Assembly: GCF_964019385.1 (NCBI RefSeq)
Contig: NC_088654.1
Location: 21,336,905-21,400,904, forward strand
Length of the DNA: 64,000 bases
Reading direction: 5' to 3'
From: Sycon ciliatum
Taxonomy: Eukaryota > Porifera > Calcarea > Leucosolenida > Sycettidae
The position numbers were made by a program, and so were the translations under genes. The notes below the pieces were generated by a model. It worked only from the letters and a program-made list of their open reading frames with translations. It did not search any database and was not told where the DNA came from. Every line of letters starts with the position of its first letter. Positions within the stretch are counted from its first letter, which is position 1. Shown one piece after another: positions 28,230 to 63,812 of this stretch.

Positions 28230-29215
28230 TCGACTATAGTCTGTTTCAAAAAGATTTACAATCAGGTTTGGATCTTAAAAAGTATGAAGATAAGGGAAAT
28301 TTGGACAACAAAGTACATAGAATGGCTTGTTAGGACACGGCAAATTGTTCTGTGAAGGTTTCGGAACAATTGGACCAACCGTTAAGGAGTTAGAATTTCG
28401 GCCAGGTTTCCGGCCTTTTCCCATGGTTTACAATTTGCCCAGGAAGCCAGTATCGATTTTTTATCAAAACCCACGATTTATCCTTTCCTTTTTGGCCTTG
28501 TGGTTATGAATGCTGTCTGCTGACCATGAAGTTGCGAGTTCAAATCCCAACCTATCCTCAAGTCAAACTTTTTTTTCATTGTTTTGGTGATCAAGCTGGT
28601 ACAAGCCTGTGACAAAGAAGATGGCTGCACCAAACGACTTGTTGTTGGAGCTCGCGCTTCCTGCCGAACTGACTGACACTTGACTGGCTCACGCCATGTG
28701 AACACACCCACAACACTGCAATGGTGTGAGTGAATTATAATGGAAGTCATCGCGCTGTAGCTTTTTGAGATTTATTTTAGTATTTCAAGATCGCCAATTT
28801 ATTTGAATTTAGCAGTCAACGCCGTCTTCTATCAGCGTTCACAAGCGTCTGCTTTTCTCAAAATGTCGTCGAAGTCACACGGATAGCTTTGCCAAGTCAT
28901 GGCCAGAGGGAATATGTCCGTGTCGATGTCGTCACACGGTGAGTAAATTGCATCGCAGCTCAAAGAAACTATTTTGGTCACAAAACGAATTGGGACCCAT
29001 GCAGCTCGTCAACATTTACAACACTTTCGTTTCGACATGTCCTCCGACTCCATTATCGATACGAGGAAGAACTCGTTTGTTGTAAACCAGACGTACATGT
29101 ACATGACAGTATCAACGTGAGTGAGTTGTCATTTTTCCTGCTTTCGCGCGGAATATTTCTTCGAGTTCACGGTGAGTTTTTCCAGGCAGCGCTCGAGTGC
29201 TCATACGGTAAGACG
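28230..29215 (+). repeat. Duplicated segment, copy 1 (uninterrupted)
   Basis: Collinear with 48490-52375: AAAAAGATTTACAATCAGGT, GGACAACAAAGTACAT, AAAACCCACGATTTATC, then the tRNA-like stretch and GGAAGAACTCGTTTGTTGTA. This copy has an empty site at 28471-28482 for the 592-bp tandem element. No continuous frame is conserved; it may be a dispersed repeat or an old segmental duplication. Confidence 0.8.
28490..28553 (+). repeat. tRNA-derived SINE-like stretch
   Basis: GCCTTGTGGTTATGAATGCT resembles a decayed A box and GAGTTCAAATCCC a B box, 33 bp apart, as in tRNA-derived SINEs. A second copy is at 51597-51655. It is too diverged to be a tRNA. Confidence 0.5.
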
Positions 29216-29499
29216 CCAAACTCTGCGGGCGATCGCCAGGATTGTAAATCTTTTTGAAACGGACTGTAGTAGCTGAAGGCATTTCTGATGAGAAGTATTT
29301 TGGACTCGCTTATGTATGATTTCTTTTTTATGCTGCTGCTGTCGGTGTGCATTGCGTTCATTGAATCAGTTTATGTTAACATTATCTAATGTAAACTCGG
29401 ATACTGAGCCAGTAATAAAATGTAAAAAAGAGAAGAAACACATGAGAACGAGTTATGCAGCAACTATCCACGACTGTAACAAGATGAATGTTGGAAAAT

Positions 29500-30456: not shown

Positions 30457-31025
30457 TATTTGACTGGATGTGCGTGTTTGCGTGGATACTTGTGACCTAC
30501 ATGTAATACTTACCTTTTTTTAATAGTAGAAAGGAAAAGGACATATGGAAACGAGTTAAGAGTAACTCTCCACCACTGTAACTAGATACTATATACAGTC
30601 AGAAAGTGCAACAACTAGGCACAAAACTGATAGAGTACTGAGACATTCGACGTCCTGACACCTAGCTTCAACACACCTCCGTAGCACTAACCGACAGCCT
30701 TCCAACTTGGAAGGTTCAAGGTTATGGAAATACCAAAGAGGGAAAGGCGAGCGCAACGAAAATGAGCACAAGCTACAGTCCCAACGGAACAAAGAATGTC
30801 GCTTGTTACTGGACGATGACGAAACCAGTAGGCGATTTGACAAAGCGGTCTAACTACAATTCGAAGCAGCACACCACCCAACTTGGGTGGGTCATAAATA
30901 TCAAAGATAAATAAAGAAGGGGGAAGCTTTGTGAGAACGAATTGTACAAGCCGAACGCCAAACTCCTACAGTACTCCTCATGCATGACATTGTGATGGAC
31001 TAGTTGACTACAAAACAAGTTGTTT

Positions 31026-31074
31026 CACACGACGTACGTTTCGCGGTATGGTTCATGATGGCTCATCAGGTGTG
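31026..31074 (-). ncRNA. Degenerate hammerhead ribozyme
   Basis: Minus strand: stem I CACAC/GTGTG, core CTGATGA, GAAA, ACGTACGT stem III and GTC site are all kept. Stem II (GCCAT / ACCGC) has lost pairs that are perfect in the 50.5-kb copies, so activity is doubtful. Confidence 0.7.
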
Positions 31075-31297
31075 CAATTTGAAACTCGGGTATTGAGCCA
31101 ATAATAAAAGTAGAATGCCTTCCCCTCTGTGGTATTTCCATAACCTTGAACCTTCCAAGTTGGAAGGCTGTCGGTTAGCGCTACGGAGATGTGTTGAAGC
31201 TAGGTGTCAGGACGTCGAATGTCTCAGTACTCCGTCCGTTTTGTGCCTAGTTGTTGCGCTTTCTGACTGTCTATAGTATCGTAAAGCTTGTACAGTC

Positions 31298-32503
31298 ATG
31301 GCGGGTGGGAGCAGTTTTGGCGCTCCTGCGTCCGCTTCCATACTGTTTAGAAGAGAGCCTGAGTGGCCGTCAGATCACGTTTACTATATAGAGGAACTGT
31401 CCAAAAATGGAGTTAGCCCTGCTGAGCTGAAGCAGGTGGATTTGCAAGGGAAGCCTGGCTGGTGCCTCGTAGCACTGTCCTGTGGAGCCGCACGCGACCG
31501 GCTTGTATCCTCTGGCTTGTCAATAAGCGGTAAGGCTGTACCTGTTACTGTGGGCGGCAGTGAAGTAATCACAGTATCGGTATTTGGATGCCCATTGCAT
31601 TTACATGATGGAGCAGTTGCAAGTTCTTTGGGGGCATTTGGAGATATTCATGGCCCAATAACAAGAAAGATCGTGGAGCATGGTGATTTTTCAATCGAAA
31701 CGGGAACCCGCCATGCAAGGATGAGTTTGAAGAAGAGCATGCCGTCTACTGTGCGTATAGGTTCCGGTAGTACTACGGTACGGGTTTGGTACCCAGGTCA
31801 AATGCAAACATGTTTTCGATGTCAGCAAGGCGGACATGAGGCAAAGGCCTGTCCAAATCGCCTCACCCACACACGGAGTACGACAAATCCATGGGGTCGG
31901 GGTCCACCAGCCAACCGCCAACTGGCCAGTGGCGTGGGGTCAGACAAAGAGGACTCATCTGCTGTAGGAGGGTCGGATGCAGAAAGAGTAGCAGGACGAG
32001 AGGCGGGAAATCCAAGCTCATTGGATCAGCAGCCTCCCTCGGCTACGACAGCCAACCGCCAGCTTGCCAGTGCCAGTGGCGTGGGGTCAGACAAACCGTA
32101 CTCGGACTCATCTGCTACAGGAGGATCGGATGCCGAAAGGGATGCATCCAGGGAACCCGAATCTGCCTCAGTGGGACGCACTGAAGGTGAGCCGGACTTC
32201 ACTCTAGCTCTGTCCCCCGACAGCAGCTGGGCTGAGGAGTCAGATGGAGGAACCCCCACCCCCTCCCCACCGCAGCCTGACCCCACCACGTCTCTGGCCC
32301 ACTCTGATCCTGCTAGTGACGAAGACAGAGCAATGGCCCTACTGGCTGACTGCGCTAAGAGCAACAGCAAAGCAGGCACCAACAGCAAACGGCAGCGAAG
32401 CTCGACCTCCCCCTCAGCTGAAACCGAATTCACCGAAGTCCGTGGAAGAAAGAAAAAGAGAAAGGGTCCAGCTGGCAGCAAGCAGAACACTTGGCGTTTT
32501 TAA
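31298..32503 (+). CDS. LINE ORF1 protein with CCHC zinc knuckle
   Basis: 401 residues. Residues about 10-165 look like the RRM-like or ZCCHC3-like region of LINE ORF1 proteins, ending ARMSLKKSMPSTVRIGSG...VRVWYPGQ. A single zinc knuckle, CFRCQQGGHEAKAC, lies at about 172-185. Residues 205-295 hold two copies of a roughly 45-residue module (ANRQLAS..GVGSDK...GGSDAERxAxREP), an internal tandem duplication. The rest is Ser/Pro-rich with a basic tail (RGRKKKRKG). ORF1 proteins bind the element's own RNA and form the transport RNP. It stops 60 bases before the ORF2 ATG in the same frame, so ORF2 needs reinitiation or a separate start. Confidence 0.88.
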   Translation: MAGGSSFGAPASASILFRREPEWPSDHVYYIEELSKNGVSPAELKQVDLQGKPGWCLVALSCGAARDRLVSSGLSISGKAVPVTVGGSEVITVSVFGCPLHLHDGAVASSLGAFGDIHGPITRKIVEHGDFSIETGTRHARMSLKKSMPSTVRIGSGSTTVRVWYPGQMQTCFRCQQGGHEAKACPNRLTHTRSTTNPWGRGPPANRQLASGVGSDKEDSSAVGGSDAERVAGREAGNPSSLDQQPPSATTANRQLASASGVGSDKPYSDSSATGGSDAERDASREPESASVGRTEGEPDFTLALSPDSSWAEESDGGTPTPSPPQPDPTTSLAHSDPASDEDRAMALLADCAKSNSKAGTNSKRQRSSTSPSAETEFTEVRGRKKKRKGPAGSKQNTWRF

Positions 32504-32563
32504 ATCTTAGAAACACGTTCAGGACTTTTTTGTTTTTAAGAACTTTAGCTCTAGGTTTACATT

Positions 32564-35494
32564 TTGGTATTTTTTAGCTTTTCGTTTATTTCTTGTTGTT
32601 TCTTCCATGGTTGCTCCATTTCGCCTCTTGTGCACAAATGCGTTCGGGTAAGTAGCAAGTTAGGCGACTTCCAGCACGCATTGCTACAGCACAACCCTGA
32701 CGTCGCAGTGGTAACCGAAACAAAGTTCACAACAGAGAAGGTCCAAGTGTCGGACACGATATTCCCGGGCTATAGCCCTCCATTCAGGCTTGACCGCACA
32801 GCACACGGTGGTGGAGTTGCAATCTGGGTGCGATCTACTCTCCCAGCCTTGATCATCGATGAACTGGCCGCCCCCCAGCATGAAGTCTTGTGGGTGTCCA
32901 TCCAGCTCAGCGCCGGGCACAAGATTGTCCTGGGAGGTGTCTACCGGCCGGGTTCTTGCGGGCCCGGTGACCTCTCACTTATCCATCATCTCGACGACAC
33001 CCTTCCTTTGGCCCGTCAACACGGCGCTAGTCTCATTCTTGCTGGGGACTTTAACGTTCACAACCGTGCCTGGCTAAACAGCTCAAAGACCACACCGGCG
33101 GGCGAAGCACTTGAGGACACTTGTGCCGCACACCTCCTTACGCAGCATGTTCAGACTCCTACTCGTGGCGACAATACCCTTGACCTCGTGATGTCTACCT
33201 TCAACTCCCCAGTATTGACAACCGCCACACCCCCTCTTGGGCGGTCTGACCACGTTATCGTTCTATCCGACTTCGTAGGCATATTACCTGGCCACGAGCC
33301 TGCAGCAAAGCGAACTGTCTGGTGGTACAAGAGCGCAGACTGGCATCACCTCCGAGCTTTCCTTCGCAGCTCTCCATGGCACGACATCATAACTGATGAC
33401 CCGGACACCTCCTGTGCGCGGGTAACCTCCACTATCAGAGGCGCAATAGCCAGGTTTGTCCCATCTAAGGAACTTACCACGAGGCCGAGTGATCCAAAAT
33501 GGTGGACACCGGAATGTACAGCTGCTATGAGGGAAAAGGACAAACGTTGGCGTTCCTGGAGAAAACACCCGAACGATCTTTCACTCAAACAAGCTTTCCT
33601 CCGCTCCGTTACCACAGCCGTCAACATCCTAAGGCGATCCCAGGAAGCTAAAGAGGCCAGTATCCGTCACAGCCTGTCCACGGGCTCACTCAAGGACAAA
33701 GAATGGTGGACCAAGTTAAAGTATGCTAGTGGGGACGGACGTAACACGGACATTCCTCTCATTGTTGACGCGGGCGGACGGGAGTTGGCAACAAGCCATG
33801 AGAAATCGGAGGCCTTTGCCACCTTCTTCTCCAGGAAGTGCAGTGTCACTGGCCAGGATTTTACTTCTGACGACTTACCTGACCTTGTTGCAACCGGAGC
33901 ACCGGCACTCGCAGCCGTTCATTTTCGCCCCGCCACTGTCTACCGTCTGCTAGCGCGACTCGACATATCAAAGGCGACTGGTCCTGACAGCATTTCAGCC
34001 CGGGTCCTGAAAGAGTGTGCCAAAGAACTGGCGAAGCCTTTGTCCCAGCTATTCGCTCTCTGTTTCAGGTGCGGAGTTCAACCAGAATCTTGGAAGACAG
34101 CTAACGTGGTACCGATCCACAAACGGTCCTCGCGCTCTGTTCTGAAGAACTACCGCCCAGTCTCGTTATTATGCATAATGTCCAAAGTAATGGAAACTAT
34201 TGTCAATCGCCAACTGATGAACCATCTTGAGCGCCAGCAGCTCCTCACTCCCCACCAGTTTGGGTTCCGTAGAGGTCTCGGCACGGCAGACGCACTACAG
34301 GCGCTTCTTAACGCCTGGGTGGACATCGTTGGCCAAGGTGGCGCGGCACGAATTCTCGCAGTCGATATAGCCGGGGCCTTTGACCGGGTCTCCCACGTGG
34401 GCCTCCTCTACAAGGTCCGGCAGCTCGGCATTACTGGCACTCTCCATAGCTGGCTATCGTCTTATCTTGACGGCCGTTCACTCCAGTGCTTAGTCGGCGG
34501 TCAGATTTCTTCTCTCTACCCAATCTCTGCAGGGGTGCCCCAAGGCAGTATATTGGGCCCTACGTTGTTTCTAATATACGTGAATGACGCTGCCGATGTT
34601 CTTGATGGCAATGCTCAGCTTGAGGCCTACGCAGACGATACGACACTATACAGTCTAGTATCCTCAGCTCAGTGCCCTCGGGACGCTGCACACACCTTGC
34701 AGGTATCCACAAACCGCCTGAATGAGTGGGGTTGCCGGTGGAAAGTGTCTTTCGAGCCCAGCAAGTTACAGGCTATGACTGCTACCCTCCGATGCACTGA
34801 CCTAGACCTGCCCCAAATCCTGTTTGGTGGTACCCCTGTACCGGAGGAAACCAGCATATCACTGCTTGGTGTTCGATTTGACTCCAAATTGTCCTTCGCT
34901 AGTCACCTCAGGACCGTGACCATCCGCGCCCAGCAGCGCCTCGGCTTTCTCCGACGAGCGGCCCACATTCTAACGCCAGCTGGCCGAACGACTATCTACA
35001 AGGCATTCGTGAGGCCCCTGATGGAGTATGCCCCGCTTGTGTGGATGGGCGCGCCAGCCAGCCACATCCAACGTCTGGATAATGTTCAACGCCGCGCACT
35101 GCGCATCATTGGCCCTGGTGCAATTCTCCCCAGTCTGGCTGTCCGCCGGACTGTTGCTGCTCTCTCGTGCATGTACAAATTGCATTTCATTACTGGTCCT
35201 CCTCAGCTACTTGCTGTATTGCCACCGCATCGCGTTTCTCCAGCCAACCCCAGAACCAGGAACCAGCACAATAATGCCACCAGCCACGCCTATCAACTGT
35301 CAGACACACTCCCTGTCTCAGCTCCATCCGTCGTGAAGCGGTCGTTCCCGTACTGCTGTATTGGCGCATGGAACTCCCTTCCTGACAGGCTGCTGTCGCA
35401 GCGCCCACACAAAACACGTTTTCAGTCATTCAAGACAAAGGTCTACCGACACCTGAGAGACAGCAACTGGTACTGGGCAACAGATTCCCTGTAA
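32564..35494 (+). CDS. LINE ORF2: endonuclease and reverse transcriptase
   Basis: 976 residues. The N-terminal 240 form an exonuclease-endonuclease-phosphatase domain with VVTETKF, GGGVAIWVR, VYRPGS, GDFNVH..W (about 160) and GRSDH (about 230). The reverse transcriptase follows: NYRPVSLL, FGFRRG, AVDIAGAFDRV (about 600), GVPQGSILGP, and AYADDTTLY (about 688), so the catalytic Asp triad is intact. The C-terminal region has LLGVRFD, FVRPLMEYAPLVW and a final W.ATD. The protein nicks DNA and primes cDNA synthesis at the nick. The first 30 residues are hydrophobic and unlike the usual endonuclease start, so initiation may be downstream or the true N-terminus altered. Confidence 0.93.
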   Translation: MVFFSFSFISCCFFHGCSISPLVHKCVRVSSKLGDFQHALLQHNPDVAVVTETKFTTEKVQVSDTIFPGYSPPFRLDRTAHGGGVAIWVRSTLPALIIDELAAPQHEVLWVSIQLSAGHKIVLGGVYRPGSCGPGDLSLIHHLDDTLPLARQHGASLILAGDFNVHNRAWLNSSKTTPAGEALEDTCAAHLLTQHVQTPTRGDNTLDLVMSTFNSPVLTTATPPLGRSDHVIVLSDFVGILPGHEPAAKRTVWWYKSADWHHLRAFLRSSPWHDIITDDPDTSCARVTSTIRGAIARFVPSKELTTRPSDPKWWTPECTAAMREKDKRWRSWRKHPNDLSLKQAFLRSVTTAVNILRRSQEAKEASIRHSLSTGSLKDKEWWTKLKYASGDGRNTDIPLIVDAGGRELATSHEKSEAFATFFSRKCSVTGQDFTSDDLPDLVATGAPALAAVHFRPATVYRLLARLDISKATGPDSISARVLKECAKELAKPLSQLFALCFRCGVQPESWKTANVVPIHKRSSRSVLKNYRPVSLLCIMSKVMETIVNRQLMNHLERQQLLTPHQFGFRRGLGTADALQALLNAWVDIVGQGGAARILAVDIAGAFDRVSHVGLLYKVRQLGITGTLHSWLSSYLDGRSLQCLVGGQISSLYPISAGVPQGSILGPTLFLIYVNDAADVLDGNAQLEAYADDTTLYSLVSSAQCPRDAAHTLQVSTNRLNEWGCRWKVSFEPSKLQAMTATLRCTDLDLPQILFGGTPVPEETSISLLGVRFDSKLSFASHLRTVTIRAQQRLGFLRRAAHILTPAGRTTIYKAFVRPLMEYAPLVWMGAPASHIQRLDNVQRRALRIIGPGAILPSLAVRRTVAALSCMYKLHFITGPPQLLAVLPPHRVSPANPRTRNQHNNATSHAYQLSDTLPVSAPSVVKRSFPYCCIGAWNSLPDRLLSQRPHKTRFQSFKTKVYRHLRDSNWYWATDSL

Positions 35495-35926
35495 TTTTTC
35501 GAGCTCGTCGCTTGCCAGACCCGCTAATCCGCGTACCTGGCCTTGCTCAGAGTGCTCAGCTGTGTTTTGCATACATGGAAAAACTTGTTATGATTCTTTT
35601 CTTTTCTCTGCTTATTCTTTTACCAGGCGTGGGCCATCCCCTGGATTATCAAAATGGGTGCCTTATTATTTTTCTGTTTTTTAGCTTGTTTTCTTTACAC
35701 TTCTTTGTGGGAGTTTCGTTTCAGATCTATTAAAAAAGTTCATAAGTTTTGGTTGATGAAGTTGACATGTACATTGTATATCAGTCCAAACACTGATAAT
35801 AAACAATCTCTTTTCATCTTGTTTTTACACCTACCGGTACTTTTACCTTCTATTCTACTTCCCCATAGCTAGATCTAGCTTTCCTTTACATTTCTGTTTC
35901 TTTTTCCTGGTGCGTGCTTGTGGCAT

Positions 35927-35954
35927 TGAAGCCGAGACCTTTGGTCGGTGGAGC
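35927..35954 (+). promoter_or_regulatory. LINE 3' UTR hairpin
   Basis: GCCGAGACCTTTGGTCGGTG. CCG/CGG and ACC/GGT stems as in 1941-1968; loop changes preserve pairing. Confidence 0.6.
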
Positions 35955-36304
35955 CCCTGGTACCTCACCATCACTGCTGCCCAGTGCAGCCCCTGCTCAG
36001 TAGCTGTTTGTTTTTGTCCACATAATTATTTATTTTACGAGTTGGGTTTGTGAATAATAGTAAAAAAAAAAAAAAAAAAAAAAAATCTAGTTACAGTGGT
36101 GGAGAGTTACTCTTAACTCGTTTCCATATGTCCTTTTCCTTTCTACTTTTATTATTGGCTCAATACCAGAGTTTTTTTAAATAATAATAATAATTACAAA
36201 TAGCGGAGTCCTCCGGATCAATAGAGTGCTCAATGCGGAAGCAGAGCAGTAACACACGAGTCACAGGAAAACCACGCGTCTTGATTGTCGTAACTTAAAG
36301 TTTC

Positions 36305-42725: not shown

Positions 42726-45700
42726 CAGTGGCGGGTTTAGGGGGGGGGGGGGCGCGGGGGGCGCGCGCCCCCCCCCCCCCCCTCAAAAGTTTCGACCTAG
42801 GTTTCAAAAAATAAACAACGCCAGGCATGCTGCACTCACCTGCAGCCCGCATCCTGCAGACGTGTGCAGTGCATGTCTGGGGGGCGCGCGCGGCCGGAAA
42901 CGAGCGTCCAAGCGGCCTGGTTCAGTGGTTGACTGTACACAGTCAGTACAGGCAGACTAGTAGTAGTATGCACGGCCAGTCACTGTGCTGCAGTCACTGT
43001 TCATTTCACACTAAACTGATCATCACTGCTTGGACGCGCTCGACGCGTCAGGTCTGGCCGGGAGATCGAGACTCTCGACTGTGTGTAGTACGTAGTATAC
43101 GCGAAGTGTACGGGATTACCTATCGTCGTATCGACGCGTATACTATCGGCGATGTATACGCATCGATAGGTAATCCCGTATACTAGAGTACGCGATCTGC
43201 GATGTGCAGCGCTGTGCAAGCGTATAAAGTGAACTTGTCACAGGAAAGCGCTTCAGAACTAAGACTTAGTAACTAACTTGAACGATCTTTCGAGCTCTGA
43301 TTTATCGCCTCGGCGTTCGAATCTGATTTGGTTGACTCTGTCGCGAAGACTTTTTGACGATGTCTCAGCGACATCCCAAAAGGCCAGGCTCTAGCCAGCA
43401 GAGCCTGGATGGATTTTTTGCAAAGCGTTCTTGTAGCGACGAAACTCCTGCTGCCGCTGCCGCTCTGCCGATTCCTGCTCCAGTTGAACTTACGGAAGTT
43501 TCCGAGCAGACTGACACTCCTCCAGATGTGGAAGCACTGGTTGTCAGCGAGCAGCCAGAACATAGCACAGCTGCCTATGTCAAGGATGCTTTGCGTGGTG
43601 AGAAATTGTCCGACTCGCAGAAATTGCAGTTGATTCGGTCCAGAAAACCAGTGCCCGGTTGCTCGCTGCCATTCTCGCTACTTGCTGACAAGAGAAAGCA
43701 GTCGGGCACATCGAAGCGATTCCTCCAGCTGTCTTTGTTTGAGAAGCACGAGTGGCTGGCGTATCACGACGGTGAAGGAGACGTATCAGCGGCTGGCGTG
43801 TATTGCTTGCCCTGCGTTCTCTTCCCCACTCTTCACCGAGGTGGATCGAGAAGGGCAGACACCCTGATCACCAAAGTCCACCGAAATTTCAAGAAACTTG
43901 GAGAGGACTTAGATGCCCATGGTCGCCTGGAGTACCATGCTGATTCGATTGCCAAGCTGTCGCACTTCATCTCCGTAGCAGAGAACCCACAGCAACGCAT
44001 TGACGCCACAATTACGGAACGGTCACAAGAACGTGTTCGGAAGAACAGACAAGTTCTCTTGTCTATTCTGCGCTGCCTGGAATTGGCTGGAAGACAAGGC
44101 CTGGCCCTTCGCGGACACCGCGATGATCTGACTGGAGATGGTGATCCAGAAGGCAATTTCCACGCGTTGATTCGGTTTGCTGTGGCAAGCGGCGATACAG
44201 TGCTGCACGACCATTTGCAAACTTGCGCAAAAAATGCAACTTACCTGTCGAACACGGCCCAGAACCAACTGCTTGTATGTATGGGTGACGAGATAACGGC
44301 GTCCATTGTCAAGAATGTCCGCGACTCTCACTATTACGGTATTCAGGCCGATGAGGTCACGGACGTCAGTGGATGGGAGCAGCTTGGTATTTCTGTGCGG
44401 TACATTTGTGACGGAGAGGCCACAGAAAGCCTGGTTTCATTTGCTGAGTGCAAGTCTGCTACTGGCGCAGCTATTTGTGACACGATTATGGGTGAGCTGA
44501 AGCGGATTGGTCTCAACCCAAAGTTCTGCCGCGCTCAAGCCTACGACGGTGCCGGAGCAATGAGTGGACATCTGAATGGCTGCCAGGCGAAGTTCAGTCA
44601 AGTAGTACCTGAAGCCCATTACTACCATTGTGCCAGCCATCAGTTAAACCTGGCGCTGACCAAGGCTTGCGCTGTGAAGTCTGTCCAGTGCATGCTATCA
44701 GACCTGCAGGCACTGGGCATCTTCTTCAAATACTCACCGAAGCGTCAGCGATGCCTTGAAACCTCCACTGCCTGGCTTAACTACCACCGTACGCAAGAGG
44801 GAAAAGAACCAATCCCAACCCTGAAGCTGAAGTTGCTGTCTGCTACCAGGTGGGTTGAGCGGCACACAGCCATCATGGATTTCAGGAAGGTGTATGAGGC
44901 TGTTGTGTTCTGCCTGGAGGTGATATGTGGCCAATCCTCAGCACCAACGCATGACCAGCAAGCTGAAGCTGGCATTGAGAAACCTTGTGAGCTGGCCAAG
45001 TTCGATGGCAAGTCAGTCACGGAGGCAAACGGACTGCTCCGAGCAATATCATCGGATGACTTTATTGTCTCCTTGCACTGTAACGTTTTCGTCTCTGCAT
45101 ACCTGAAAGGTCTGAGTGCTCTTCTCCAAGGTTCACATTTGGATATATTGGAAGCATACTCCCAGATATCCGGAGTCGTCGCTGTCTTTCAAGGTCACCG
45201 CGGGGAGGCGGACATATCATTCAAGAAGGTCTATGGTGAAATTTGCAGTCTAACAGCTGTCCATGGGAGAGAGAAACCAGTCATTCCTCGCACTTCAGCA
45301 CGCCAGACACAGCGTAGCAATGTGCCTGCCTCCGATGCAGAGGAGTACTGGCGCAGGTCAGTTTTCGTGCCGTTCCTGGATTCGGTTATTTCTGAAATGG
45401 GCAGTCGTTTCAGTTCCCTGAACCAGAAGGCCATCCAGGCACTCCTTCTTCTCCCTGCCAACTTGGATCGCATGACATCCGATCACATTGCCAACATAGA
45501 GGCAGCCTATGCTTCTGATCTCCCAGACAAGAGCAGTTTCAGAGCTGAAGTGGAGCTGTGGATGAAGAAGTGGGAAATGCGCCCAGCAGGACAACACCCA
45601 ACTTCTCTCCCCAGTACTGTCAAGGAAACCAATTCCATACTCTACCCAAACATCTCGTGCATCTTGCAGCTTGTCCTTGTCATTCCTGTGACATCCGCTG

Positions 45701-46219
45701 GCGTCGAACGTGCTAACTCCACCCTGAAGTTTATCAAAACGGAACGCCGCAGCACCATGACGCAGTCACGACTGAATGCCCTTGTGCTTCTGCATTGCCA
45801 CAAGAGCATTCCTCTCGATCTGGATGCTGTATTGAACAGGTTTGCTTCAGCTCATCCTCGGAGAATGCTGTTGGTGAACCCTGTCCAGGAGGAGTCCGAA
45901 GGCAACTGCCCCGATTTGTAACTTCTCTCCTGTTGACGTGCCCTGCCAAACTTTGAAGCAAAGCTGCGTGTACTTACCATGTGCAGAGGCAACTGCTATA
46001 TCCCTTCTATGTACTTTCATTATTAATTTTGTGATGCAAGCTTTGGAAATACATGTACAATAAATGATTTAAATACATTTTGTTTTTCGTGTTGTGTGAG
46101 ATTCAAGGCTTCTGGACATCATTTTCAAAATGGCCGACCCGGGACAGTAGCATGATGTCATCTATCCCCACCGCGTCCAGGCCGCAACCCCCCTCAGTCA
46201 AATCCTGGACACGCCACTG
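42726..46219 (+). mobile_element. Complete hAT transposon with intact transposase
   Basis: 3,494 bp with ends CAGTGGCGGGTTTAGG and CCTGGACACGCCACTG, which are inverted copies (CAGTGGCGKGTYYAGG). GTCAT flanks both sides (42721-42725, 46220-46224). Directly inside the left end is a long G-run then C-run palindrome (42739-42782). Removing the element and one GTCAT restores an open LINE frame for about 50 more codons, strong support for these boundaries. Some hAT groups make 5-6-bp duplications; most make 8. Confidence 0.88.
43360..45921 (+). CDS. hAT-family transposase (TTF finger / DUF4371 / dimerisation domain)
   Basis: 853 residues from ATG at 43360; no stop or frameshift. Order: QQSLDGFF at 13-20, a fit to the PCNA-interacting box; a TTF-type zinc region around 125-185 (W..Y, CLPC, H); DUF4371/RNase-H-like core with YYGIQADEVTDVSG (about 330) and AQAYDGAGAMSG (about 393) carrying the likely catalytic Asp residues; CASHQLNLAL (about 425); and the C-terminal hAT dimerisation segment, GVERANSTLKFIKTERRSTM..SRLNALVLL (about 785-820). 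It resembles ZMYM1/THAP12-type hAT proteins. The enzyme would bind the CAGTGGCG ends and cut and paste the element. An undamaged gene between matching ends suggests recent activity. A domesticated host gene is less likely given the flanking ends and target duplication. Confidence 0.92.
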   Translation: MSQRHPKRPGSSQQSLDGFFAKRSCSDETPAAAAALPIPAPVELTEVSEQTDTPPDVEALVVSEQPEHSTAAYVKDALRGEKLSDSQKLQLIRSRKPVPGCSLPFSLLADKRKQSGTSKRFLQLSLFEKHEWLAYHDGEGDVSAAGVYCLPCVLFPTLHRGGSRRADTLITKVHRNFKKLGEDLDAHGRLEYHADSIAKLSHFISVAENPQQRIDATITERSQERVRKNRQVLLSILRCLELAGRQGLALRGHRDDLTGDGDPEGNFHALIRFAVASGDTVLHDHLQTCAKNATYLSNTAQNQLLVCMGDEITASIVKNVRDSHYYGIQADEVTDVSGWEQLGISVRYICDGEATESLVSFAECKSATGAAICDTIMGELKRIGLNPKFCRAQAYDGAGAMSGHLNGCQAKFSQVVPEAHYYHCASHQLNLALTKACAVKSVQCMLSDLQALGIFFKYSPKRQRCLETSTAWLNYHRTQEGKEPIPTLKLKLLSATRWVERHTAIMDFRKVYEAVVFCLEVICGQSSAPTHDQQAEAGIEKPCELAKFDGKSVTEANGLLRAISSDDFIVSLHCNVFVSAYLKGLSALLQGSHLDILEAYSQISGVVAVFQGHRGEADISFKKVYGEICSLTAVHGREKPVIPRTSARQTQRSNVPASDAEEYWRRSVFVPFLDSVISEMGSRFSSLNQKAIQALLLLPANLDRMTSDHIANIEAAYASDLPDKSSFRAEVELWMKKWEMRPAGQHPTSLPSTVKETNSILYPNISCILQLVLVIPVTSAGVERANSTLKFIKTERRSTMTQSRLNALVLLHCHKSIPLDLDAVLNRFASAHPRRMLLVNPVQEESEGNCPDL

Positions 46220-49575: not shown

Positions 49576-50544
49576 AAAATGGCTTGTTAGGGCAAGGCAA
49601 ATAGTTCTGTTAAGGTTTGAATTCTTTTATTCTCACGATGGCCTGTGGCCAATAAGAGAAAAATAATTACAGGCACGGGGATCAGATACAGAGAGATCAA
49701 AGTTTAGCTGCTTGCTGAGGCAGTAGCGATGGCAATACTAATTGGGAGTTAAAGGTTTCGGAACAATTGTTTGTTGTTGTTTTTTGTTTGTATTTATTTT
49801 GATTCGCGAATTCAAACGGGCATAGAACCCAATAACATGAAAGCGAATATGAAAATTATAATGAGAATTAAAATATTTAGATCTTCAGCGTAGAGTCAGC
49901 GGTACATCAGAGGGAGATCGGGTACAACAGATTTCGATTGGACCAACCGTTAAGGAGTTAGAATTTCGGCCAGGTTTCTGTCCTTTTCCCCTGGTTTATA
50001 ATTTGCCCTGGAAGCCCGTATCGATCTGTTATCAAAACCCACGATTTATCGACATATGGATACGAGTTTAGAGTAACTCTCCATCACTGTAACATGATAC
50101 TATATACAGTCAGAAAGTGCAATAACTAGGCACAAAACTGACAGAGTACTGAGACATTCGACGTCCTGACACCTAACTTTAACACATCTCCGTAGCGCTA
50201 ACCGACAGCCTTCCAACTTGGAAGGTTCAAGGTTATGGAAAAGACCAAAGAGGGGAAGGCAAGCGCAACGAAAACGAGCAAAAGCCACAGTCCCAACGGA
50301 ACAAAGAATGTCGATTGTTACTGGACGATGACGAGACCAGTACGATATTTGACAAAGCGGTCTAACTACAATTCGAAGCAGCAAAGCAGCACACCACCCA
50401 ACTTGGGTGGGTCATAAATATCAAAGATAAGTAAAGAAAGGGAAGCTTTGCGAAAACGAATTGTACAAGCCGAAAGCCAAACTCCTACAGTACTCCTCAT
50501 GCATGACATTGTGATGGACTAGTTGACTACAAAACACGTTGTTT

Positions 50545-50593
50545 CACACGACGTACGTTTCGCCGTATGGTTCGTGACGGCTCATCAGGTGTG
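50545..50593 (-). ncRNA. Minimal type I hammerhead ribozyme, unit 1
   Basis: Minus-strand order: stem I CACAC (50593-50589); CTGATGA (50588-50582); stem II GCCGT (50581-50577) and ACGGC (50566-50562), perfect; GAAA (50561-50558); palindromic ACGTACGT stem III; predicted cut after C 50550 in GTC; stem I partner GTGTG (50549-50545). Every core residue matches the consensus. The very short palindromic stem III is typical of PLE and retrozyme hammerheads, which are thought to work best as dimers. Confidence 0.9.
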
Positions 50594-51136
50594 CAATTTG
50601 AAACTCGGATGTTGAGCCATAAATAAATGTAAAATAGAAAAGGACATATGGATACGAGTTTAGAGTAACTCTCCATCACTGTAACATGATACTATATACA
50701 GTCAGAAAGTGCAATAACTAGGCACAAAACTGACAGAGTACTGAGACATTCGACGTCCTGACACCTAACTTTAACACATCTCCGTAGCGCTAACCGACAG
50801 CCTTCCAACTTGGAAGGTTCAAGGTTATGGAAAAGACCAAAGAGGGGAAGGCAAGCGCAACGAAAACGAGCAAAAGCCACAGTCCCAACGGAACAAAGAA
50901 TGTCGATTGTTACTGGACGATGACGAGACCAGTACGATATTTGACAAAGCGGTCTAACTACAATTCGAAGCAGCAAAGCAGCACACCACCCAACTTGGGT
51001 GGGTCATAAATATCAAAGATAAGTAAAGAAAGGGAAGCTTTGCGAAAACGAATTGTACAAGCCGAAAGCCAAACTCCTACAGTACTCCTCATGCATGACA
51101 TTGTGATGGACTAGTTGACTACAAAACACGTTGTTT

Positions 51137-51185
51137 CACACGACGTACGTTTCGCCGTATGGTTCGTGACGGCTCATCAGGTGTG
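51137..51185 (-). ncRNA. Minimal type I hammerhead ribozyme, unit 2
   Basis: Identical to the unit 1 motif, 592 bp away. Predicted cut after 51142. Confidence 0.9.
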
Positions 51186-51596
51186 CAATTTGAAACTCGG
51201 ATGTTGAGCCATAAATAAATGTAAAATAGAAAAGGACATATGGATACGAGTTTAGAGTAACTCTCCATCACTGTAACATGATACTATATACAGTCAGAAA
51301 GTGCAATAACTAGGCACAAAACTGACAGAGTACTGAGACATTCGACGTCCTGACACCTAACTTTAACACATCTTAACACGTCGGTTAGCGCTACGGAGAT
51401 GTGTTAAAGTTAGGTGTCAGGACGTCGAATGTCTCAGTACTCTGTCAGTTTTGTGCCTAGTTATTGCACTTTCTGACTGTATATAGTATCATGTTACAGT
51501 GATGGAGAGTTACTCTAAACTCGTATCCATATGTCCTTTTCTATTTTACATTTATTTATGGCTCAACATCCGAGTTCCACGATTTATCCCTTCCTT

Positions 51597-58945: not shown

Positions 58946-58968
58946 TAATAATAATAATAATTTGAAAC

Positions 58969-59520
58969 TCGGGTATTGAGCCAATAATAAAAGTAGAAAG
59001 GAAAAGGACATATGGAAACGAGTTAAGAGTAACTCTCCACCACTGTAACTAGATACTATATACAGTCAGAAAGTGCAACAACTAGGCACAAAACTGACAG
59101 AGTACTGAGACATTCGACGTCCTGACACCTAGCTTCAACACATTCCCGTAGCGCTAACCGACAGCCTTCCAACTTGGAAGGTTCAAGGTTATGGAAAGAC
59201 CAAAGAGGGGAAGGCAAGCGCAACGAAAATGAGCGCAAGCTACAGTCCCAACGGAACAAAGGCTGTCGATTGTCACTAGACGATGACTAGACCAGTAGGC
59301 GATTTGACAAAGCGGTCTTACTACAATTCGAGGCAGCAAAGCAGCACACCACCCAACTTGGGTGGGTCAAAAATATCAAAGATAGGCCGTCGAATGTCTC
59401 AGTACTCTGTCAGTTTTGTGCCTAGATGTTGCACTTTCTGACTGTATATAGTATCTAGTTACTGTGGTGGAGAGTTACTCTTAACTCGTTTCCATATGTC
59501 CTTTTCCTTTCTACTTTTAA
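58969..59520. mobile_element. 592-type fold-back, short form
   Basis: Left arm 58969-59135, right arm 59388-59520; outer end TTTGAAACTCGGGTATTGAG at the left. It lacks the part of the unit that contains the hammerhead. (TAA)n lies on both sides. Confidence 0.85.
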
Positions 59521-59948: not shown

Positions 59949-60042
59949 TAATAATAATAATAATAATAATAATGACAGTCAATTTTTCCTTCAGACTTTT
60001 CCCGTTTGTCTCTTTCCCTCAAATTAGTCAATAATAATAATA
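59949..60042. repeat. (TAA)n tracts
   Basis: (AAT)8-like run at 59949-59974 and another at 60031-60042. Similar tracts: 55023-55052, 58946-58968, 59519-59530, 60759-60771, 61945-61960, 61986-62001, 62831-62850. Confidence 0.9.
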
Positions 60043-60762
60043 ATGTAGAAGAGAAAAGGACATATGGATACGAGTTAAGAGTAACTCTCCATCACTGTAA
60101 CATAATACTATATACAGTCAGAAAGTGCAATAACTAGGCACAAAACTGACAGAGTACTGAAACATTCGACGTCCTGACACCTAGCTTCAACACATCTCCG
60201 TAGCGCTAACCGACAGCCTTCCAACTTGGAAGGTTCAAGGTTATGGAAAGACCAAAGAGGGGAAGGCAAGCGCAACGAAAAAGAGCAAAAGCTACAGTCC
60301 CAACGGAACAAAGAATGTTGATTGTTACTGGACGATGACGAGACCAGTACGATATTTGACAAAGCGGTCTAACTACAATTCGAAGCAGCAAAGCAGCACA
60401 CCACCCAACTTGGGAGGGTCATAAAATATCAAAGATAAGTAAAGAAAGGGAAGCTTTGCGAAAACGAATTGTACAAGCCGTTTTGCTCGTTTTCGTTGCG
60501 CTTGCCTTCCCCTCTTTGGTCTTTCCATAACTTTGAACCTTCCAAGTTGGAAGGCTGTCGGTTAGCGCTACGGATATGTGTTGAAGCTAGGTGTCAGGAC
60601 GTCGAATGTTTCAGTACTCTGTCAGTTTTGTGCCTAGTTATTGCACTTCCTGACTGTATATAGTATCATGTTACAGTGATGGAGAGTTACTCTTAACTCG
60701 TATCCATATGTCCTTTTCCCTTCTACATTTATTTATGGCTCAACATCCGAGTTTCAAATAAT
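60043..60762. mobile_element. 592-type fold-back, long form
   Basis: Left arm 60043-60290 and right arm 60481-60762, with a 190-bp centre. The right end is GGCTCAACATCCGAGTTTCA then (TAA)n: the fixed terminus seen also at 58969, 36170 and 51576. No hammerhead region. Confidence 0.88.
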
Positions 60763-62798: not shown

Positions 62799-62850
62799 AT
62801 TAAGATTATTGTCTCCACGTCGCCTTTTTAAATAATAATAATAATAATAA
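62799..62850. repeat. (TAA)n tract
   Basis: (AAT)7-like run directly before the first tRNA-like unit. Confidence 0.85.
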
Positions 62851-62927
62851 TTTGGAAAGGATTGGGAGAACTTCAAATTCAAAGGATCAGTCGGGGAAGT
62901 GAACTGCCTGAAAAGAGAAAAAACGCC

Positions 62928-62998
62928 AGACTCACCAGGACTCGAACCTGGGACCCTGCTTGTCATGAGCAATGCTCTAACCACTGAGCTATGGGACC
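62928..62998 (-). ncRNA. tRNA-like sequence, unit 1
   Basis: Minus strand: GGTCCCA acceptor, A box TAGCTCAGTGG, anticodon stem TTGCT/AGCAG with loop CATGACA, B box GGTTCGAGTCC, then TTTTTT. The loop lacks U33 and the acceptor has mismatches, so it is a Pol III promoter module and not a working tRNA. Confidence 0.8.
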
Positions 62999-63235
62999 AG
63001 GCTGAACCTAGAAGGTGCTGACAAGTTTTTCACTCCAAAGGCAGCTCACAACACGTGCCACACATACTGATGGCACTTGGGTCTTTTTCCCTCCCCCAGG
63101 GGACCAACCACGGTCAGTTTCTGGAAACTACCAGAGGTGAAAGAAAGTGATTAAATTTGGAAAGGATTGGGAGAACTTCAAATTCAAAGGATCAGTCGGG
63201 GAAGTGAACTGCCTGAAAAGAGAAAAAAAAACGCC

Positions 63236-63306
63236 AGACCCACCAGGACTCGAACCTGGGACCCTGCTTGTCATGAGCAATGCTCTAACTACTGAGCTAT
63301 GGGACC
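63236..63306 (-). ncRNA. tRNA-like sequence, unit 2
   Basis: As unit 1 with two or three changes; followed by a run of nine T on the minus strand. Confidence 0.8.
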
Positions 63307-63540
63307 AGGCTGAACCTAGAAGGTGCTGACAAGTTTTTCACTCCAAAGGCAGCTCACAACACGTGCCACACATACTGATGGCACTTGGGTCTTTTTCCCT
63401 CCCCCAGGGGACCAACCACGGTCAGTTTCTGGAAACTACCAGAGGTGAAAGAAAGTGATTAAATTTGGTAAGGATTGGGAGAACTTCAAATTCAAAGGAT
63501 CAGTCGGGGAAGTGAACTGCCTGAAAAGAGAAAAAACGCC

Positions 63541-63611
63541 AGACCCACCAGGACTCGAACCTGGGACCCTGCTTGTCATGAGCAATGCTCTAACCACTGA
63601 GCTATGGGACC
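63541..63611 (-). ncRNA. tRNA-like sequence, unit 3
   Basis: As units 1 and 2; followed by TTTTTT on the minus strand. Confidence 0.8.
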
Positions 63612-63812
63612 AGGCTGAACCTAGAAGGTGCTGACAAGTTTGAAGTTCTCCCAATCCTTTCCAAATTTAATCACTTTCTTTCACCTCTGGTAGTTTCCAG
63701 AAACTGACCGTGGTTGGTCCCCTGGGGGAGGAAAAAGACCCAAGTGCCATCAGTATGTGTGGCACGTGTTGTGAGCTGCCTTTGGAGTGAAAAACTTGTC
63801 AGCACCTTCTAG

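What the first reader, a model, noticed from the sequence alone, without database searches (positions are those of the whole stretch)
50039..51588. A 592-nt tandem hammerhead element with a 12-bp target duplication and an empty site in the same window
Seen: units exactly 592 bp apart, one full minimal type I hammerhead per unit, perfect CCACGATTTATC duplication, and the unoccupied paralogous site at 28471-28482. Known: plant and animal retrozymes are non-coding, tandem, hammerhead-bearing and give circular RNAs. Inferred: this is an animal retrozyme-like family with an unusually long monomer and an inverted third unit, made by reverse transcription of a circular or dimeric RNA.
Basis: partly seen in the sequence, partly recalled or inferred. 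Interest (0 to 1): 0.95.

Follow-up and report, generated by a model that had tools for sequence, protein, structure and literature searches.

The report
Hammerhead retrozyme inserted like Penelope elements
The window holds a short mobile element without genes that carries a self-cutting RNA; its copies across the same genome indicate that it is pasted into DNA from both cut strands at once, as Penelope retroelements are, which points to the still unknown helper of animal retrozymes.

Summary
Two identical 592-bp units (50051-51234) plus a partial third, each full unit with one type I hammerhead on the minus strand, are followed by an inverted 0.34-unit arm. CCACGATTTATC flanks them; a paralogous empty site lies at 28471.

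The window has three more copies. The genome has 1,404 matches to the hammerhead (39-mer, up to 3 mismatches; reversed-pattern control 0). The family is an animal-type retrozyme with an unusually long monomer.

The two-armed copies read share one build: two outward-facing arms of 0.05-7 tandem units with RNA 3' ends outside. One outer end lies at site S (U10-21, once U592), the other at site L ~30 nt away (U42-53): 53 of 54 elements. Most sit in (AAT)n; duplications are ~11-13 bp. Arms of one element match each other far better than arms of different elements, so one template or source served both.

Penelope-like (RT + GIY-YIG) elements of this genome show the same head-to-head, one-tailed build (13 of 13 read directly; 23 of 26 with listed pairs). 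Best reading: two-sided target-primed reverse transcription of a circular (or clean multimeric) RNA by Penelope machinery. Expression, cleavage and the partner are untested.

The parts
50039..50050 (+). left target-site duplication CCACGATTTATC
   Evidence: paralogous empty site at 28471-28482
50051..50642 (-). retrozyme unit 1 (592 bp; RNA sense on minus strand; U1 = 50642)
50643..51234 (-). retrozyme unit 2, identical to unit 1
51235..51373 (-). partial unit 3, same orientation; end of left arm (2.23 units)
51374..51379 (.). 6-nt filler at the junction of the two arms
51380..51576 (+). inverted right arm (0.34 unit), RNA 3' end facing right
51577..51588 (+). right target-site duplication CCACGATTTATC
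50544..50594 (-). type I hammerhead of unit 1; deduced cleavage 50550|50549; palindromic helix III ACGUACGU
   Evidence: RF00163, 26.8 bits, below gathering 34
51136..51186 (-). type I hammerhead of unit 2; deduced cleavage 51142|51141
50622..50633 (-). site S (U10-21): short reverse-transcription start used at one end of each insertion (this copy's own S-type end is at U592, slightly outside)
50590..50601 (-). site L (U42-53): long ('tail') start used at the other end
28471..28482 (+). unoccupied paralogous target site
30526..31280 (.). copy B: left arm 30526-31116 (-), right arm 31116-31280 (+), continued at 36088-36174 after a nested LINE; hammerhead with mismatches in stem II (core starts 31069, minus)
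36088..36174 (+). outer end (L) of copy B, followed by (AAT)n
58959..59519 (.). copy C: arms 58959-59384 (-) and 59384-59519 (+), in (AAT)n, ends L/S
60042..60759 (.). copy D: arms 60042-60480 (-) and 60481-60759 (+), in (AAT)n, ends S/L
29393..29485 (-). old fragment of the tail end of a relative (77% identity)

Best explanation
The element is a non-autonomous animal-type retrozyme (592-nt monomer, type I hammerhead). Inferred cycle: a tandem copy is transcribed, the hammerheads (probably as dimers, through the palindromic helix III) cut it to monomers, and these are closed to 592-nt circles. A Penelope-like RT/GIY-YIG protein binds the RNA, makes a staggered cut (about 11-12 nt) in AT-rich DNA, here mostly (AAT)n, and primes reverse transcription from BOTH strand ends, one at site S and one at site L ~30 nt apart on the RNA. 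Each polymerase may run several times round the circle, giving tandem arms; the two cDNA ends are joined by microhomology or filler. Shown here: two-armed build, S/L rule, target, duplications, arms of one element from one template or source, the same build in the genome's Penelope-like elements. Inferred: circle, hammerhead activity, and the Penelope protein acting in trans.
For: Copies have outward-facing RNA 3' ends on both sides. Ends are S on one side and L on the other in 53 of 54 elements with both ends read (51 of 52 rows, minus 2 S/L rows of a duplicated locus, plus 4 S/L elements whose ends lie in separate pieces); SL 27 and LS 24 rows, so neither orientation is favoured. S ends are at U10-21 (once U592), L ends at U44-53 in the table, U42 for copy B. 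On contig C1 the exact-match ends pair as 22 S/L (7 of them already in the 53), 0 S/S, 5 L/L candidates; the 4 candidates fetched each resolve into separate neighbouring elements, the fifth was not fetched. Arms reach 6.70 units (6.98 in the S/S element); 34 of 49 elements have an arm over one unit and 10 have both. Arm breakpoints do not pile up at the deduced hammerhead cut (1 of 98 within 10 nt of U93; about 3.5 expected). Left and right arms of one element differ at 17 of 13,246 sites against a mean of 0.62% with shuffled partners, 0 of 2000 shuffles as low (37 elements within 2% of the unit). Unit length is constant in all 18 multi-unit elements. Circle fold -177.9 kcal/mol against -143.8 +- 6.4 for 20 shuffles. 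Penelope-like frames are present (GIY-YIG over cut-off; RVT_1 seen in L061 just under its cut-off), and their copies are head-to-head with a tail on one side only: 13 of 13 read directly, plus 10 S/L and 3 L/L pairs from capped lists. Published: a Penelope-like protein cuts and extends both strands and starts RT at two adjacent internal sites (PMC11167929, parts 1-3 of 4 read).
Against: No RNA data; hammerhead activity not shown; the Rfam score is below gathering and the minimum-energy fold of the isolated motif is not the hammerhead. Invariance of the hammerhead (39 of 40 elements) is not exceptional: 85 of 543 equal windows are as invariant in the non-window copies. Exceptions: one S/S element (C8:24733613); L031 and L039 second have an atypical left end; L033, one in L067 and one in L080 have only one arm. 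The Penelope copies examined share no sequence with the unit and mostly sit in AT-rich non-repeat DNA (one of ten in an ATT repeat; also L060), whereas the retrozyme prefers (AAT)n (46 of 49; 39 of 42 without the 7 elements found by an AT-flank pattern): the actual partner is not identified. Among Penelope copies one is L/L (C1:65743015) and two more L/L pairs were not resolved; S calls rest on lists cut at 100 of 118 tails and 100 of 221 ends. One listed retrozyme array mixes spacings of 592 and 596 (C1:2634014). A clean linear multimer would leave the same marks as a circle.
Confidence: 0.72

Rival explanations
1. LINE-type twin priming: a LINE protein nicks, primes at the RNA 3' end, and the second strand primes internally by microhomology, giving a 5' inversion.
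For: Head-to-head inversion, 3' ends outward and 11-13 bp duplications fit in outline; a LINE with two long open frames and poly(A) lies in the window at 31281-36087.
Against: Twin priming is known (recalled) to start the inverted arm at scattered internal sites and in a minority of copies; here both arms start at two fixed sites ~30 nt apart in 53 of 54 and the inversion is the rule. No poly(A) at the ends printed.
Confidence: 0.08
2. Self-priming (snap-back) on an antisense template, as proposed for head-to-head Penelope copies in PMC3846280.
For: Palindromic head-to-head structures; proposal read in passages of that paper. Turning points of the two arms are somewhat closer than chance (14 of 49 within 50 nt, 9.6 expected), not significantly.
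Against: A snap-back arm would copy the first arm from its turning point and end with the same outer site. Observed: different outer sites (S and L), and turning points spread over 0-294 nt (median 107, shuffles 133, P 0.09).
Confidence: 0.05
3. Same two-sided priming, but the template is a long linear multimeric transcript of a genomic tandem copy, not a circle.
For: Genomic tandem copies exist; PMC11167929 proposes multi-copy transcripts as the Penelope template. Constant unit length and one source per element are also expected.
Against: Arms of up to 7 units show no source flank in the copies read; non-unit sequence was met only at arm junctions (fillers up to 141 nt, L080), with a few same-strand jumps there (L037, L041, L050). 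The middles of three large loci (C10, C11, C14) were not read.
Confidence: 0.2
4. The mobiliser is another AT-repeat-targeting element (for instance a Dong/R4-type LINE, recalled to sit in TAA repeats), not a Penelope-like element.
For: Strong (AAT)n preference (46 of 49), which most Penelope copies examined lack.
Against: The one-tail, head-to-head, both-strand mark is found in this genome's Penelope-like copies and in published Penelope work; R4-type elements were not searched for here.
Confidence: 0.1
5. Satellite-like amplification by unequal crossing-over, or assembly error.
For: Tandem, near-identical units; one locus pair looks duplicated (M2/M3).
Against: Dozens of loci with target duplications or repeat targets, an empty site, different unit counts and private variants.
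Confidence: 0.02

Closest known systems
Metazoan non-LTR retrozymes (Cervera & de la Pena 2020, PMC7229834; parts 1-4 of 6 read)
   Same: Non-coding tandem units, type I hammerhead, GC under 50% (43%), target duplications over 4 bp, highly self-paired predicted circle, co-existing Penelope-like elements. LTR, PBS and PPT motifs were not searched for.
   Different: Monomer 592 nt against ~170-400 nt; copies two-armed with S/L ends; (AAT)n targets. The weak palindromic helix III is like that described there for amphibians.
Penelope-like elements (PMC11167929 parts 1-3 of 4; PMC3846280 passages)
   Same: Head-to-head arms, 'tail' on one of the inverted ends, short duplications, AT-rich target, hammerhead motif, tandem copies.
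   Different: No ORF of RT/EN; hammerhead cut ~45-80 nt downstream of the start sites (in the published Anolis element the cut lies ~85-92 nt upstream of them); mostly (AAT)n targets; no sequence similarity to the Penelope copies read here.
Plant LTR retrozymes (PMC4918200 passages; PMC7229834)
   Same: Hammerhead, circular RNA model, 600-800-nt circles.
   Different: Type III hammerhead, LTR/PBS/PPT, 4-bp duplications.

Membership tests
Metazoan non-LTR retrozyme | type I hammerhead in each unit | tested here: met
   RF00163 26.8 bits, E 7e-4, but below gathering 34; 1404 matches in the genome
Metazoan non-LTR retrozyme | short non-coding tandem units, 150-450 bp | tested here: inconclusive
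   tandem; longest stop-to-stop frame 103 codons; unit 592 bp, longer than reported
Metazoan non-LTR retrozyme | low GC, self-paired monomer | tested here: met
   43% GC; circle -177.9 against -143.8 kcal/mol for 20 shuffles
Metazoan non-LTR retrozyme | target duplications longer than 4 bp | tested here: met
   12 bp here; 11-13 bp elsewhere where readable
Metazoan non-LTR retrozyme | expressed as linear and circular monomer RNA | not testable with these tools
   no RNA data
Metazoan non-LTR retrozyme | self-cleavage | not testable with these tools
   no bench data
Penelope-like element (as insertion mechanism) | head-to-head arms with tail at one end | tested here: met
   53 of 54 elements; Penelope copies 13 of 13 read directly, 23 of 26 with listed pairs
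Penelope-like element (as family member) | RT and GIY-YIG ORF | tested here: not met
   longest stop-to-stop frame 103 codons; so it works like one but is not one
LINE-mobilised retroelement | one fixed 3' end (often poly(A)) with only occasional twin priming | tested here: not met
   two fixed ends, two arms as the rule; the definition is recalled

The most novel reading that the evidence does not exclude
Penelope machinery works as a pair on one RNA: its two polymerases are set at two fixed template positions ~30-37 nt apart, each takes one strand of a staggered cut, and on a circular retrozyme both run round and round, a two-sided rolling-circle target-primed reverse transcription. The 'optional tail' of Penelope elements is then the distance between the two polymerases, present once per insertion.
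Probability: 0.45. Interest if true: 0.88.

Novelty: new variant of a known kind. Interest (0 to 1): 0.74.

Why it matters
Which enzyme moves animal retrozymes is open in print (PMC7229834 and PMC11722881 name LINEs or Penelope-like elements as candidates). This family gives a readable mark, with about 1,500 L-type ends in the genome: two arms, one S end and one L end, one template or source. It ties a retrozyme to Penelope machinery, gives a reason for the odd Penelope 'tail' and inverted copies, argues against self-priming, and makes the two-sided mechanism testable in vitro with a 592-nt circle.

Tried and rejected
LINE as autonomous partner: the ORFs next to copy B (31277-35491) and the unit's tail at 36090 at first looked like a LINE built from the unit; the poly(A) at 36063-36085 and the unit coordinates (U382-546 | LINE | U550-634) show a LINE nested in copy B. 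Hammerhead conservation as proof of selection: rejected, many windows are equally invariant. Strand preference of the S end: none (24 AAT-primed, 22 ATT-primed, 3 other). S arms are slightly longer than L arms (31 of 49, Wilcoxon P 0.047); not used. Viral contigs hold no exact match of a 33-nt hammerhead stretch. Rfam at E up to 1 found no hammerhead in six Penelope loci, although a core-like CTGATGA...GAAAC is there. Papers PMC8557442, PMC4209133 and PMC5785218 are not held. Literature searches that bear on novelty; of these I saw listings with starts of abstracts, none of which mentions the one-S-one-L rule; six papers were opened, PMC7229834 and PMC11167929 in large part, the other four (PMC3846280, PMC7761336, PMC4918200, PMC11722881) as passages.

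Full report
What is there. The window carries two identical 592-bp units and 139 nt of a third (50051-51373), joined through a 6-nt filler to an inverted arm 51380-51576, all between two copies of CCACGATTTATC. A paralogous stretch around 28471 holds the site once, without insert. Each full unit has a type I hammerhead on the minus strand. The longest stop-to-stop frame is 103 codons. I number the unit in RNA sense, U1 = 50642 to U592 = 50051; the hammerhead core starts at U55 and the deduced cut follows U93.

More copies in the window. Copy B (30526-31280 plus 36088-36174) is split by a LINE with poly(A); copies C (58959-59519) and D (60042-60759) sit in (AAT)n. All are two-armed, like the reported copy. 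An old tail fragment is at 29393-29485.

Genome. A 39-nt hammerhead stretch occurs 1,404 times with up to 3 mismatches, none for the reversed control. A DNA search reported 228 unit matches (a lower bound) and listed 150, which I grouped into 39 loci. I read the ends of all 39: 20 fetched whole, the others from search loci, smaller pieces or the window; the middles of three large ones (C10, C11, C14) were not read. I added window copies B, C and D, four loci chosen as possible exceptions and one copy met beside a Penelope element.

The two-arm, S/L rule. Every copy with two arms has a left arm with sense on the minus strand and a right arm with sense on the plus strand, so both RNA 3' ends face outward. 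Outer ends fall at S (U10-21, once U592) or L (U42-53). The automated table has 63 rows: SL 27, LS 24, SS 1, two with an atypical left end (L031, L039 second), nine cut by a locus edge. Removing two rows of a duplicated locus (M3 = M2) and adding four elements whose two ends lay in separate pieces (B, C10, C11, C14) gives 53 S/L of 54. The exception is S/S (C8:24733613), whose arms meet near the L site; a deletion between two neighbours could make it. One-armed: L033, L067 second, L080 first; a few hits under ~150 nt in the table's remainder were not classed. Two elements (M1 first and L038) have the same turning points (U383/U424) in mirror image, with different flanks and unit lengths; a short palindrome there may be a hot spot. 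On contig C1, exact-match ends (28 S, 94 L) pair as 22 S/L, 0 S/S and 5 L/L; 7 of the 22 are already in the 53. Four of the five L/L were fetched; three (L081-L083) are two neighbouring S/L elements whose S ends mostly carry substitutions, and the fourth (L080) is a one-armed L piece beside an S/L element. The fifth (8,966 bp apart) was not fetched. Whole-genome counts of ends in AT-only flank, up to 2 mismatches, are 831 S and 1,502 L; the S pattern is the more variable one, so the two are not comparable.

Target. Of 49 elements, 25 are in AAT repeats, 21 in ATT repeats and 3 elsewhere; leaving out the 7 found by an AT-flank pattern, 39 of 42. Where the target is not a pure repeat the duplication reads 11-13 bp. 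Either repeat strand can prime the S arm (24 and 22).

One template or source. Units within an arm and between the two arms of an element differ by 0.37 and 0.33 changes on average (70 and 45 pairs) against 3.1 between elements (400 random pairs). For 37 elements within 2% of the unit the arms differ at 17 of 13,246 shared sites; with partners shuffled the mean is 0.62% and 0 of 2,000 shuffles reach the observed 0.13%. With all 50 elements that share 60 sites or more (cut ones included) the figures are 0.37% and 2.0%. One very active source locus or gene conversion could help produce this. Arms run across the hammerhead cut without stopping (1 of 98 breakpoints within 10 nt of U93), and reach 6.70 units (6.98 in the S/S element), as expected of a circle or a clean multimer. 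All 18 multi-unit elements have one unit length, though one locus in a listing (C1:2634014) mixes spacings of 592 and 596. Junctions: 26 with shared bases, 6 blunt, 17 with filler of 49, and no significant closeness of the two turning points (P 0.09).

Penelope-like elements here. 13 GIY-YIG hits include frames with RT-like and GIY-YIG parts (RVT_1 in L061 is just under its cut-off); the best hit is a UvrC-like gene on a small contig. Two long copies, L061/L064 and L062/L065, have an inverted 3' arm upstream. Reading ends: L059, L061/64, L062/65 and L063 (by eye) and nine of ten short loci fetched because they carry a tail (the tenth, L087, runs out of the piece) have one short and one tailed end: 13 of 13. 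Having chosen ten by their tail, that sample could show L/L but not S/S. Pairs from two pattern lists are 15 S/L, 0 S/S, 3 L/L of 18; 5 of the 15 were already counted, so the union is 23 of 26. The lists showed 100 of 118 tails and 100 of 221 ends, so some listed S ends could carry an unlisted tail. The unit shares no sequence with these Penelope copies, apart from a retrozyme copy inserted beside L059.

Reading. A published Penelope-like protein cuts and extends both strands and starts RT at two adjacent internal sites, with no difference between strands overall (PMC11167929). [quoted passage not shown] The copies read here show the tail on one side in nearly all cases and arms that share a source but not a turning point. 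This fits two-sided target-primed reverse transcription by a protein pair better than snap-back or LINE twin priming. Animal retrozymes were proposed to be moved by LINEs or Penelope-like elements (PMC7229834; PMC11722881); the mark found here favours the latter.

Limits. No RNA, no cleavage test, no identified partner protein, no name for the organism. The Rfam score is below gathering and the isolated motif prefers another fold. The retrozyme's (AAT)n preference is not shared by most Penelope copies read.

Noticed in passing
window 31281-36087: LINE with ORF1 (408 codons, no Pfam hit) and ORF2 (979 codons, endonuclease + RVT_1) and poly(A), nested in retrozyme copy B.
   Followed up: partly
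window 43336-45918: 861-codon open frame with DUF4371 and hAT dimerisation domain: hAT-type transposase.
   Followed up: no
window 62849-63641: 308-bp tandem repeat, 2.6 copies, with three tRNA matches on the minus strand.
   Followed up: no
G000 contig C291, L051: 17.5-kb contig with a UvrC-like gene (best GIY-YIG hit; name recalled from the frame): perhaps a bacterial contaminant or symbiont contig.
   Followed up: no
L058, L063: A second Penelope-like family with a different 3' end; L063 also shows one short and one tailed end with duplication CTAATATTCTA.
   Followed up: partly
C8:16818586-16829432 (L006-L013): Two neighbouring loci with the same two retrozyme elements and identical junctions: a local duplication or assembly duplicate.
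   Followed up: partly
C10:28066324-28067656: Penelope tail ends repeated on one strand at 421, 421 and 455 bp: likely a tandem array of a short Penelope derivative.
   Followed up: no
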